33,174 nt of DNA from Curvivirga aplysinae (GTDB taxonomy: Bacteria; Pseudomonadota; Alphaproteobacteria; UBA8366; Aestuariispiraceae), in the NCBI RefSeq assembly GCF_009711445.1, contig NZ_SMMC01000186.1:1-33174 (forward strand), given 5' to 3'. Under the pieces are notes generated by a model that saw nothing but the letters and a program-made list of their open reading frames with translations, made no database searches and was not told the DNA's origin. Both the position numbers and the translations under genes were made by a program. Shown here piece by piece: positions 4,049 to 31,385 of the stretch (its first letter is position 1; each line of letters opens with the position of its first letter).

Positions 4049-4873
4049 ATGAATTTCATCCCAGGAAAACAATATAGAAGAAAAGAGATCCACAACGAGT
4101 TTGGAGGATCACGACAAGGCGGCATAGCAAACTGTGCGGCCCATCCTTTCATCTTCATCTTTACAGGTAAATCTGGCTCTGAGTTTGGGTACGATGACCA
4201 CTGGGATGATGATGGCCAATTTATCTACTGCGGGGAAGGTCAAACAGGTGACATGAAATTCCAACGTGGTAATCTTGCTATTCGTGATCATGCGCAACTA
4301 GGTAAAGATATTCACGTCTTCGAAACTCTCGGGAAAAGTAAGCCTGTTAGATATGTTGGTCAATTTGCCTGCACTGGATGGCACGAAGACACGATACCTG
4401 ACAAAAACAAAAATATGCGAAAAGGCCTCTTCTTTCACTTAATCCCAGTGAATGACTTAGTAGATACAGATGAAAGTGCAGTAGAAGAGATATCTCAATC
4501 ACTCATCACAACAAAAGATCTTAATGAGTTGAGAGATCTTGCAATCAGTAATGATGCTCAACCTGGTGCCTATAAATCTGTAGAAGGGCGAAAGAAGATT
4601 TATCTTCGCAGTGGCGCAGTTAAAGCCTATGTGCTGGCTCGAGCTCAAGGTAAATGTGAAGGATGTGGAGAAGATGCCCCATTCACCAATAAGAAGGGTG
4701 TTCCTTATCTTGAGCCACATCACACAAGGCGTCTCTCCGATGGTGGTCCAGACGATCCACGTTGGGTCGCTGCTTTGTGCCCTAACTGTCATAAGGAAGT
4801 GCACTACGGGAAGGATGGAGCAAACTACAATGCTTCGATAATAGAGAAATTATCTCAATTGGAAGCTGGCTAA
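4049..4873 (+). CDS. SRA-HNH endonuclease, ScoMcrA-like (type IV restriction)
   Basis: This 274-residue protein has two parts. Residues 1-135 match the SRA-like domain described in the Streptomyces coelicolor McrA group, with conserved stretches near NEFGGSRQGGIANCA, FTGKSG, GEGQTGDM and GNLAIRDH. Residues about 185-255 form an HNH nuclease with zinc cysteines C203/C206 and C244/C247, catalytic-site HH at 224-225 and a final H252. SRA domains read modified bases, so a DNase cutting methylated or otherwise modified DNA is the likely role. It stands alone on the plus strand near the att site, typical of prophage-borne defence cargo. No methylase is nearby, as expected for a type IV enzyme. The modification recognised cannot be told. 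Confidence 0.85.
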   Translation: MNFIPGKQYRRKEIHNEFGGSRQGGIANCAAHPFIFIFTGKSGSEFGYDDHWDDDGQFIYCGEGQTGDMKFQRGNLAIRDHAQLGKDIHVFETLGKSKPVRYVGQFACTGWHEDTIPDKNKNMRKGLFFHLIPVNDLVDTDESAVEEISQSLITTKDLNELRDLAISNDAQPGAYKSVEGRKKIYLRSGAVKAYVLARAQGKCEGCGEDAPFTNKKGVPYLEPHHTRRLSDGGPDDPRWVAALCPNCHKEVHYGKDGANYNASIIEKLSQLEAG

Positions 4874-26022: not shown

Positions 26023-26838
26023 CTATTTACCTAAACTTTGAAGTTGCCGGAAAGAAATCTCACAACTCTGCCAATCATCCTTAGGATGACAGCCAAACTC
26101 TCTATCACCTTCAAGTTCATTCCAGAACAGATAGTAGCTATTTGTGCCGCTCCCATCTACAACAGCTTTCCAGAATGCGTGCGGAACAGCGATCTTATGT
26201 TTCTTTCCAATGAACTTCTTTTCTTCATTATTTATGAATATCGTTGCTGCAGAAAAATGAAGCTCTTCGCCATCTTTTAAGCGTTTACGGTTATGCGTCT
26301 CAAAGTCATACCAAGCGCCGCCTTGACTATTAAACTGTGGTAACTGTGGTGCGATATTGGACATGTAGTTGATCTCAAATACTGTACAAGCATCATCAAT
26401 ATCTTCGATAGGAAGTTTGTCTTGACCTTCAAGCTCAGCATCCATTCCGTCATTATCACGATCGCCACCGGACACGAAATACGGTACTAAATGCCCACGA
26501 TGATAACCGCTATTCGTGTAGTCAGACGTCACCACTTGGTTCTCCTCAGGAAGTGCTGGATCAGGTTTAAAGGATTTCCAACGACCTTCTCTTTCCGGAG
26601 TATCTAAGTATTCCGTCTCACCCTTCCAAAATGAGATAAACGGTATGTTGTTAACATGGTCATAAGCCGTAACATAACCGCGACGCACAATGACTTCATC
26701 AAGGGTAAATGGGATAGGTCCAGGTGTATGCTTGTCAAACCAAGTCTGTTTAGCATCCCCTTCTAATTCTACACATTTAGGCGCGGCCAAACTCGGCGTC
26801 GCGATAAGTGCAAATACAACAGCCAGTATCTTTTTCAT
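26023..26838 (-). CDS. Secreted DNA/RNA non-specific endonuclease
   Basis: The frame is open from 26940, but the ATG at 26836-26838 has AGGAGG 10 nt upstream and starts a clear signal peptide (MKKILAVVFALIATPSLAAP, cleavage near Ala18-Ala19), so it is chosen (271 residues). The nuclease core has RGHLVP with catalytic H116, then NYMSNIAPQ with N161, and N170, W176 and E180 in NSQGGAWYDFE. This is the NUC1/EndA betabetaalpha-metal family. The enzyme should be exported to the periplasm or medium. It has its own terminators on both sides, like a cargo cassette. Confidence 0.88.
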   Translation of the reverse strand: MKKILAVVFALIATPSLAAPKCVELEGDAKQTWFDKHTPGPIPFTLDEVIVRRGYVTAYDHVNNIPFISFWKGETEYLDTPEREGRWKSFKPDPALPEENQVVTSDYTNSGYHRGHLVPYFVSGGDRDNDGMDAELEGQDKLPIEDIDDACTVFEINYMSNIAPQLPQFNSQGGAWYDFETHNRKRLKDGEELHFSAATIFINNEEKKFIGKKHKIAVPHAFWKAVVDGSGTNSYYLFWNELEGDREFGCHPKDDWQSCEISFRQLQSLGK

Positions 26839-26896
26839 AATTTCCCTTCCTCCTAAGTGAAAGAAAGGAATACACTTGAATCGAGATTTCAGGCAA

Positions 26897-26926
26897 CAAA
26901 AAACCCGCTGACCTTTGGGCAACGGG
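26897..26926 (-). terminator. Intrinsic terminator before nuclease gene
   Basis: Minus-strand CCCGTTG (26926-26920) pairs with CAGCGGG (26910-26904), then a T6 tail at 26903-26898. It ends the transcript of the 231-residue membrane protein gene and shows that the nuclease ORF does not begin at 26940. Confidence 0.82.
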
Positions 26927-26983
26927 CATAAAGATTTCAATATTAAGTGATTTGTACCCTAAAAGTGCGACATTTGCAACATT

Positions 26984-28186: not shown

Positions 28187-28921
28187 CTACTCTGCTGCCT
28201 CTGCATTACGGCCCATACGCAAATCCAGAAATTCCTTTAGCTGATGCCCTACCCGTTGGCGCTCATCTTTATTAACTGGTTTCCAATTAGGTTTAGCTTT
28301 GAAGATTTCCTGCTTTATGCGTGATAGCTCGGCTCTCAACTTCATTCGTCCCTCTGCGCTTTCCCGACAAAATGCAAGTATTTCCGATGGTGTAGGCTGA
28401 AAGGTTTTCTCCTTTCTGTGCCGACGAAACGCATCAGCTACACAATCAGGGCTATATCCCGTTACATCTTCCATAAAGGTCAGGATACGCGCTTTAAGGT
28501 CTGTCGCATCCATTCCGTTACGTGGAGCTTGACTGCTGGCGCATTTTGCCAATTCCACAGCAAATAAGGATTGTTGAACTGGTCGTTTCATCACGTTCTC
28601 TACAAGGTTGATAGCTTGATCCAAATCATTGAGGCAGATATCCGCAGGATTGCCTATAGCGTAAACTTCGTTAATTTCGCCATTGGCTTTCAGCATCAAT
28701 CTCAGCCGAGGCTTGAGCGTAGCCGGAAACGATGCCACCAGTGCCTGATCCACCGCCACCGGATCGCCCGCCTTGCCCGCTTCGATTACGGCTGGTGGAA
28801 GAGTAGTCGTTGAGTATCCAGTTTTCCCAAGTTCGGTACCAGTCGACTTTCGTTGCTGCTTGTCCAGACTTACCAATCCAGTAGTTTTTGAATTTTCTTG
28901 CTTCAATGCAGATTTGCTCAT
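28187..28921 (-). CDS. Replication-associated protein overlapping O-like gene
   Basis: This 244-residue protein starts at ATG 28919-28921 behind AAGGAGG at good spacing, which sits inside the upstream gene. Residues 1-84 are encoded in the same DNA as the C-terminus of the O-like protein, in another frame. The remaining 160 residues are helical, with TGYSPDCVADAFRRHRKEKT and TPSEILAFCRESAEGRMKL, like helper or loader proteins encoded after replication initiators. An internal ATG at 28696 would remove most of the overlap but has only a weak ribosome site. Function as a helicase loader (lambda P position) is inferred. Confidence 0.65.
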   Translation of the reverse strand: MSKSALKQENSKTTGLVSLDKQQRKSTGTELGKTGYSTTTLPPAVIEAGKAGDPVAVDQALVASFPATLKPRLRLMLKANGEINEVYAIGNPADICLNDLDQAINLVENVMKRPVQQSLFAVELAKCASSQAPRNGMDATDLKARILTFMEDVTGYSPDCVADAFRRHRKEKTFQPTPSEILAFCRESAEGRMKLRAELSRIKQEIFKAKPNWKPVNKDERQRVGHQLKEFLDLRMGRNAEAAE

Positions 28922-29528
28922 CAGTCAAACCCTCCTTATGGGCAAAGGTGATTTCTTTCTCGGTTGGTTCCCAATCCTCTGGAAGTCGTGTACCGCGTTT
29001 TGTCTTTTTGGGCGGGAGTGACGGATTTTCCGGCACCACTAAACTATCGGTCTCGGGTTCGGGTTCGGGTTCGGGTTCGGTTGTATCGATAGGGTTTCGA
29101 TAGGCTATAGATAGCCCTTTCAATTCATCAAGATCACAGGCGTATTTATCAGCCTTCAAATCCTTGATTACATTGGCTTTCAGATCACAATCCGGTAATG
29201 CTAAGGCAAGCTTAACAGCGCCGATAGCGTGTTTCTTGTTGGTGGTCGGTGATTTTTCCAGAAATTTGGCTATCTTTAGGATAGATTCATCCTTGTTCCA
29301 CTCTATCAATAGGGCTTTGCATAGGCTATCGATAGCCTTTAAAACTTCTGTTTCCGCCCATCCCAAATCTGCCATTGCATAGCCTATCTGTAGCCTATAA
29401 CAACCAATGGAATTGGTATGGGTAGAGGTATGCAGATATAGATAAAACAATCTTGCCTTATCATCAGCCAAGCTCAAAAACCGCTTAGATTGCCATATAG
29501 TCGTGTTTATTTTTCCATAGTCACGCAT
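28671..29528 (-). CDS. O-like replication initiator (winged helix)
   Basis: This 285-residue protein has an N-terminal helical winged-helix-like region (residues 5-100, with TTIWQSKRFLSLADDKARLF and YRLQIGYAMADLGWAETEV) seen in phage replisome organisers. A Glu-Pro repeat (EPEPEPEP) linker follows near 150, then a second conserved domain (THKEGLTDEQI, KFKNYWIGKSGQ, VDWYRTWENWI) as in phage replication proteins, and a Gly/Ser tail. The gene contains iteron-like DNA repeats, as lambda O does. GGAG lies about 7 nt before the ATG. Confidence 0.78.
   Translation of the reverse strand: MRDYGKINTTIWQSKRFLSLADDKARLFYLYLHTSTHTNSIGCYRLQIGYAMADLGWAETEVLKAIDSLCKALLIEWNKDESILKIAKFLEKSPTTNKKHAIGAVKLALALPDCDLKANVIKDLKADKYACDLDELKGLSIAYRNPIDTTEPEPEPEPETDSLVVPENPSLPPKKTKRGTRLPEDWEPTEKEITFAHKEGLTDEQICIEARKFKNYWIGKSGQAATKVDWYRTWENWILNDYSSTSRNRSGQGGRSGGGGSGTGGIVSGYAQASAEIDAESQWRN
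29055..29078. repeat. Hexanucleotide tandem repeat (4 x GGGTTC)
   Basis: Four exact copies of GGGTTC (plus strand) encode the Glu-Pro linker of the O-like protein. Whole-codon slippage would change linker length without a frameshift. Confidence 0.9.
29084..29400. repeat. Iteron-like repeats inside O-like gene (candidate origin)
   Basis: Two copies of a degenerate 39-bp unit lie at 29084-29122 and 29304-29343, each containing an ATAGGCTAT-N-GATAGCC core followed by TTT. A third block at 29376-29399 has CATAGCCTAT and TAGCCTAT in tandem. The two long copies are read in different codon phases, so protein conservation does not explain them. Lambda-type origins consist of such repeats within the initiator gene. 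Confidence 0.6.
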
Positions 29529-31121: not shown

Positions 31122-31385
31122 CTACATCCCAATAGCTGACATGTAGGTTTCAAGAAGTGCCTCTTGTTCAGCACGATCCGCATCATCCATCTTTCGGATT
31201 TTTAGGATTTCAACCATGGTCTTTTTATCAAAGCCATCACTAACCGCCTCGGCGAAAATTTGCTTTTCATCTTCTTGGGCTTCTTTAACTACCCCCCTTT
31301 GACGTTCAATGCGCTCTATAAAGCTGCGAAGACGTGCGCCAGTTGCGCCGCCGGGGCCTTGTTCTGTATGTGTTTGTTCAGACAT
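31122..31385 (-). CDS. GapR/DUF2312-like DNA-binding protein
   Basis: This 87-residue protein matches DUF2312: RLRSFIERIERQR, VKEAQEDEKQIFAEAVSDGF, ILKIRKMDDADRAEQEALLE and an end YMSAIGM. In Caulobacter the family member GapR is a nucleoid protein that binds overtwisted DNA ahead of forks. The family is an alphaproteobacterial marker. It is the first gene downstream of a strong terminator. A phage copy could help its own replication or replace host GapR at phage DNA. Confidence 0.85.
   Translation of the reverse strand: MSEQTHTEQGPGGATGARLRSFIERIERQRGVVKEAQEDEKQIFAEAVSDGFDKKTMVEILKIRKMDDADRAEQEALLETYMSAIGM

What the first reader, a model, noticed from the sequence alone, without database searches (positions are those of the whole stretch)
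29084..29400. Iteron-like repeats in the initiator gene read in different frames
A unit of about 39 bp (ATAGGCTAT-N-GATAGCC core) occurs twice, about 220 bp apart, with a third partial block. The two long copies encode unrelated peptides (LKGLSIAYRNPID versus LKAIDSLCKALLI) because they are in different codon phases. Selection must therefore act on DNA. This is the arrangement of lambda ori, where O binds iterons in its own gene.
Basis: partly seen in the sequence, partly recalled or inferred. Interest (0 to 1): 0.62.

Follow-up and report, generated by a model that had tools for sequence, protein, structure and literature searches.

The report
Phage origin inside its initiator gene
Inside a prophage's replication-initiator gene lie tandem 11-base DNA repeats that are probably the binding sites of that same protein, so one stretch of DNA is both gene and replication start; this is a known layout, but here one set of sites also spells part of the protein's own predicted DNA-reading helix.

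Summary
The repeats are real and exceed chance. Units with up to 2 mismatches number 7 in the gene and 6 in the other 32 kb; no codon-preserving shuffle matched this (0/500). Three consecutive units are read in three frames (LSIA/AYRNP/PIDT). A 51%-identical homolog has the same motif at the two main places, one in a shifted frame. Homologs in Klebsiella, Acinetobacter, Escherichia and Firmicutes phages carry their own 11-bp arrays at corresponding places; two groups show reduced synonymous variation there. In some relatives the pre-linker array is inverted relative to the other. Best reading: initiator-binding iterons of a replication origin inside its own gene, as in lambda O, SPP1 gene 38 and pSK41 rep. 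The protein is not shown to be a lambda O family member. The unusual part: one array lies in codons of the predicted winged-helix recognition helix, conserved across several families; the lambda O control lacked this. Binding and origin activity are inferred, not shown.

The parts
28671..29528 (-). Initiator gene, 285 aa: predicted winged-helix N-domain (about 1-90, with helices to about 145), disordered Glu-Pro linker (about 136-178), C-domain resembling primosomal/DnaT-like proteins (about 180-250)
   Evidence: phrog_1701 DnaD-like helicase loader E 2.5e-20; phrog_3992 primosomal protein E 1.1e-16; phrog_1408 E 2e-14; weak DnaT Pfam E 0.018; AlphaFold2 models
29373..29400 (-). Iteron array A, 2 units (CTACAGATAGG CTATGCAATGG), codons 43-52 (strand b1 to helix H2)
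   Evidence: not seen in homolog L003 at this place
29302..29340 (-). Iteron array B, 3 units (CTATCGATAGC CTATGCAAAGC(C) CTATTGATAGA), codons 63-76: most of recognition helix H3 (59-71) to start of strand b2
   Evidence: conserved place in homologs
29269..29279 (-). Isolated iteron-like unit CTAAAGATAGC (2 mismatches), codons 84-87
29082..29119 (-). Iteron array C, 3 units (CTATCTATAGC CTATCGAAACC CTATCGATACA) read in three different frames, codons 137-150, just before the linker
   Evidence: conserved place in homologs
29047..29081 (-). Repetitive Glu-Pro linker codons (GAACCC repeats) abutting array C
29252..29311 (.). Among the least stable stretches of the replication region, between arrays B and C; candidate unwinding element, weak evidence
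   Evidence: nearest-neighbour stability; position not consistent across homologs
28187..28921 (-). Next gene, 244 aa, overlapping the initiator frame by 251 bp; possible lambda P-like partner by position only
   Evidence: no family match; weak similarity to the L003 downstream ORF, E 0.003 in a single comparison

Best explanation
The 11-bp units are iterons bound by the N-terminal winged-helix domain of the protein encoded by the same gene, and together they form the replication origin of this P22-like-portal prophage. Inferred mechanism: initiator molecules bind side by side, about one per helical turn, on array B (and A) in the winged-helix codons and on array C before the linker; contacts between arrays about 220 bp apart shape or melt the DNA between them; the C-domain, with or without the adjacent gene product, delivers the host helicase or primosome. 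Shown: the repeats, their codon-independent conservation, their place, and similarity of the gene to initiator families. Inferred: binding, melting, origin activity, self-regulation.
For: Units are 43-fold denser in the gene than in the rest of the window and no codon-preserving shuffle reaches the count. Mean 11-bp autocorrelation in both array regions over several families, 0.54 and 0.48 at lag 11 with a second peak at lag 22; 11 is not a multiple of 3 (families were chosen for having arrays). Homolog L003 keeps the motif at both main places although the region before the linker is in another frame. Homologs have own-sequence arrays: Klebsiella GGGTTTCGAAAGGGTT, Acinetobacter GAAGGGGCTTCAAAGGGGCTT, Geobacillus E2 CGGTATCGATACGGTATCCATAG, Exiguobacterium CCCTATCGATACTGTATCGATAC. 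Motif shared between helix-coding and later codons beyond codon expectation (p<=0.03) in 13 of 27 homologs. Synonymous diversity is low over both arrays in 71 Klebsiella-group and 48 Acinetobacter-group sequences. The motif finder recovers the four annotated lambda O iterons as positive control. In Dunaliella viridis virus SI2 the array persists just after the stop codon of the N-domain ORF. Initiator-family matches; winged-helix models, with weak hits to the N-terminal domain of a DNA-binding protein that I take from memory to be the pSK41-type plasmid initiator (4pql) and to a Rep-DNA complex (5kbj).
Against: No binding, footprint or replication data. Foldseek E-values are all above 0.001, so the structural link is to winged-helix proteins in general. 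No consistent AT-rich unwinding element. Firmicutes homologs and the L087/L216/L222 group have only the pre-linker array. Homologs are not all independent (five Acinetobacter-type rows, two nearly identical), so the combined p-value is overstated.
Confidence: 0.8

Rival explanations
1. Autoregulatory operator: the protein binds sites in its own gene mainly to block transcription or limit its amount, and the true origin lies elsewhere.
For: Sites lie inside the gene for the DNA-binding protein; nothing here shows unwinding; DUE evidence is weak.
Against: Placement before the linker matches proven origins in lambda O and pSK41 rep; SPP1 oriL also lies in its initiator gene. Autoregulation and origin function are not exclusive.
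Confidence: 0.1
2. RNA-level element: palindromes or complementary arrays form mRNA hairpins that control expression.
For: Units are near-palindromic; one is a terminator-like match at 29103-29116; in Acinetobacter phages the two arrays are 25 nt, 96% complementary.
Against: Array orientation varies: direct in the window gene, L003, Klebsiella L185, L231 and L321, inverted in Acinetobacter phages and L002, so long-range pairing is not conserved; tandem 11-bp spacing fits DNA faces better. No fold of this RNA was run.
Confidence: 0.04
3. Mobile or slippage-born repeats (palindromic element insertion or microsatellite-like growth) without function.
For: The neighbouring linker is itself a simple repeat.
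Against: The motif is not dispersed in the host genome; distant families have different-sequence arrays at the same gene places; synonymous constraint.
Confidence: 0.03
4. Sites serve another DNA-binding protein (host or phage), not this one.
For: Binding specificity was not tested.
Against: Sites travel with this gene across unrelated hosts and change sequence between initiator families.
Confidence: 0.03

Closest known systems
Phage lambda O gene / ori-lambda (and Stx phages)
   Same: Iterons inside the initiator gene, between the DNA-binding N-domain and the C-domain, read in more than one frame; recovered by the same motif finder
   Different: Lambda has four 18-bp iterons (20-24 bp apart) and an adjacent AT-rich tract, and none found in winged-helix codons; here 11-bp tandem units, two or three arrays, one in the recognition-helix codons. 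No Pfam lambda O family match.
RepA_N plasmid initiators (pSK41 rep)
   Same: Winged-helix, DnaD-like N-domain binds boxes centrally in its own rep gene; the ori-encoded part is a linker (PMC5703833)
   Different: pSK41 has four Rep boxes only in the dispensable central part; no RepA_N Pfam match here; structural hit weak
SPP1 gene 38 / oriL
   Same: Phage initiator binds direct repeats inside its own gene (PMC6316719)
   Different: SPP1 has a second origin, oriR, elsewhere; its sequence could not be fetched, so it was not compared here
phrog_1701 DnaD-like helicase loader / replication initiation PHROGs
   Same: N-domain match over residues 1-161
   Different: Family models describe the protein only and say nothing about internal iterons

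Membership tests
Origin embedded in the initiator gene (general kind) | Multiple iterons inside the coding sequence, selected at DNA level | tested here: met
Origin embedded in the initiator gene (general kind) | Initiator binds the iterons | not testable with these tools
   needs EMSA or footprinting
Origin embedded in the initiator gene (general kind) | Segment supports replication | not testable with these tools
   needs mini-replicon test
Lambda O family | Match to the lambda O protein family | tested here: not met
   No lambda O model among Pfam matches at E<=0.1; PHROG matches are DnaD-like loader and initiator families
Lambda O family | AT-rich tract adjoining the iterons | tested here: inconclusive
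   moderately AT-rich windows between arrays, not consistent across homologs
RepA_N initiators | RepA_N domain by sequence | tested here: not met
   No RepA_N match at E<=0.1
RepA_N initiators | N-domain fold like the pSK41 Rep N-domain | tested here: inconclusive
   4pql and 5kbj among many winged-helix hits, probability 0.82-0.98 but E-values 0.2-0.5
DnaD-like phage helicase loader/initiator (phrog_1701) | Profile match over the N-domain | tested here: met
   E 2.5e-20, residues 1-161

The most novel reading that the evidence does not exclude
Changes of iteron sequence and of reading specificity would then be coupled, helping to explain why each lineage has its own iteron sequence at the same gene place.
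Probability: 0.35. Interest if true: 0.72.

Novelty: new variant of a known kind. Interest (0 to 1): 0.5.

Why it matters
It predicts exact, uncharacterised origins, by sequence alone, for a family of temperate-phage initiators found in several bacterial phyla, including phages of Acinetobacter, Klebsiella and Escherichia. If sites in the recognition-helix codons are functional, they make a clean test of how a DNA-binding protein and its target can evolve when encoded by the same bases.

Tried and rejected
Dispersed genomic repeat: rejected, no excess elsewhere in the genome. Rac prophage YdaU as a solved relative with oriJ: YdaU is annotated DUF1376 and the papers read did not place oriJ in ydaU. 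Profile search of solved structures: nothing significant. A scan of genome contigs found no relative, and a mixed alignment was too diverse to scan with. No near DNA relative in phage records. Promoter scan no better than shuffles. SPP1 could not be fetched. A lambda P-like role for the next gene has only positional support. Literature searches in the open library found the general kind but no report of arrays in recognition-helix codons; subscription papers are not held.

Full report
What is there. The minus-strand ORF 28671-29528 (285 aa) belongs to a prophage with P22-like portal, scaffold, major head and terminase genes. It matches DnaD-like helicase loader and replication-initiation PHROGs. 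AlphaFold2 gives a confident winged-helix N-domain (recognition helix 59-71, wing strands 75-78 and 83-86), a disordered linker (136-178) and a C-terminal helical domain. That helix 59-71 is the recognition helix follows from the order of elements in a winged-helix fold; it was not tested.

The repeats. The finding's coordinates and peptides are correct. The true unit is 11 bp: eight units in three arrays, plus an isolated one at 29269-29279. With up to 2 mismatches to CTATCGATAGC there are 7 in the gene and 6 in the other 32 kb; 500 shuffles that keep the protein and codon usage reach at most 5. Because 11 is not a multiple of 3, the three units of array C are read as LSIA, AYRNP and PIDT in three frames. 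With the linker masked, repeated k-mers still exceed nearly all codon-preserving shuffles.

Relatives. L003, a 51%-identical homolog in an IMG/VR contig of higher G+C, has the same motif in the recognition-helix codons and before the linker; before the linker the motif is in another frame. More distant homologs have arrays of different sequence in the same places: Klebsiella TTTCGAAAGGG units at codons 58-62 and 135-139; Acinetobacter, Escherichia and other Klebsiella TTCGAAGGGGC-type units at about codons 59-67 and 148-155; Firmicutes TATCGATAC-type units only before the linker. The common skeleton looks like CCC-N-W-TCGA-W; this is by eye. A test for a motif shared between recognition-helix codons and codons 105-230 beyond codon expectation gave p<=0.03 in 13 of 27 homologs, including the window gene. 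The combined p-value (3e-11) assumes independence that does not hold, since several rows are one lineage.

Orientation. In Acinetobacter phages the two arrays are inverted relative to each other (25 nt, 96% complementary), so the same DNA reads as EGASKGL in the helix and APSKPL before the linker. In Klebsiella phage ST974-OXA48phi18.2, a relative of about 60% identity, they are direct. Position is kept while frame and strand are not: the mark of selection on DNA.

Synonymous constraint. Among 71 distinct Klebsiella-group genes the lowest 9-codon window of synonymous diversity is codons 58-66, the helix array (0.028; the array as a whole 0.061 against 0.203 for the rest, degeneracy-matched p=0.004), and the next is codons 145-153; the array before the linker has p=0.01. 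In 48 Acinetobacter-group genes the helix array has p=0.003 and the pre-linker array p<0.001. Sequences within a group are related, so the p-values are guides.

Controls. The motif finder recovers the four annotated lambda O iterons at codons 117-139 and nothing in lambda's helix codons. In Dunaliella viridis virus SI2 the array CCGTATCGATA CCCTATGCAAA CCCTATGCATA lies just after the stop of the N-domain ORF, with linker-like DNA following: the DNA sites seem to persist where no longer translated in that frame.

Interpretation. The layout equals that of proven origins in initiator genes: lambda O (PMC7466680), SPP1 gene 38 (PMC6316719), pSK41 rep (PMC5703833). The last shares a DnaD-like winged-helix N-domain, boxes in the gene centre and a linker encoded by the origin. 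By function the window locus most likely works like these. By family it is a DnaD-like phage initiator; lambda O and RepA_N sequence membership were not met at the thresholds used. The distinctive point is an array in recognition-helix codons, where the peptide is unlikely to be dispensable. Whether those sites are bound, and whether they couple the evolution of reader and target, is open.

Noticed in passing
28671-28921: The initiator ORF and the next gene (28187-28921) overlap by 251 bp in different frames; the true start of the second gene may lie further in.
   Followed up: no
26023-26940: Secreted-looking DNA/RNA non-specific endonuclease (PF01223, E 4e-27) between the terminase and replication regions of the prophage.
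   Followed up: no
4049-4873: Protein with HNH endonuclease match and weak SRA-domain match, possibly a modification-dependent restriction enzyme.
   Followed up: no
31122-31385: Small GapR-like DNA-binding protein (PF10073, E 6e-24) encoded in the prophage early region.
   Followed up: no
L319:3120-3977 (E. coli K-12 ydaU): Six CTGATGTTCAA-like units (codons 49, 77, 130, 141, 145, 151; codon-shuffle p about 0.02): a candidate for the origin of the Rac prophage (oriJ) inside ydaU.
   Followed up: partly
L014:3600-3690 (Dunaliella viridis virus SI2): Three 11-bp iterons lie just after the stop codon of the N-domain ORF; the gene may be split in two with the array between.
   Followed up: partly
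L039:130-915: Distant homolog with four or five tandem CCTATCGA units encoding LSNDLSIALSNDLSI before the linker.
   Followed up: no
29047-29081 and homolog linkers: The linker after the pre-linker array is a simple-repeat, purine-rich coding strand in most homologs (EPEP, QEQE, KEKE, TEKTTEK); it may have a DNA-level role too.
   Followed up: no
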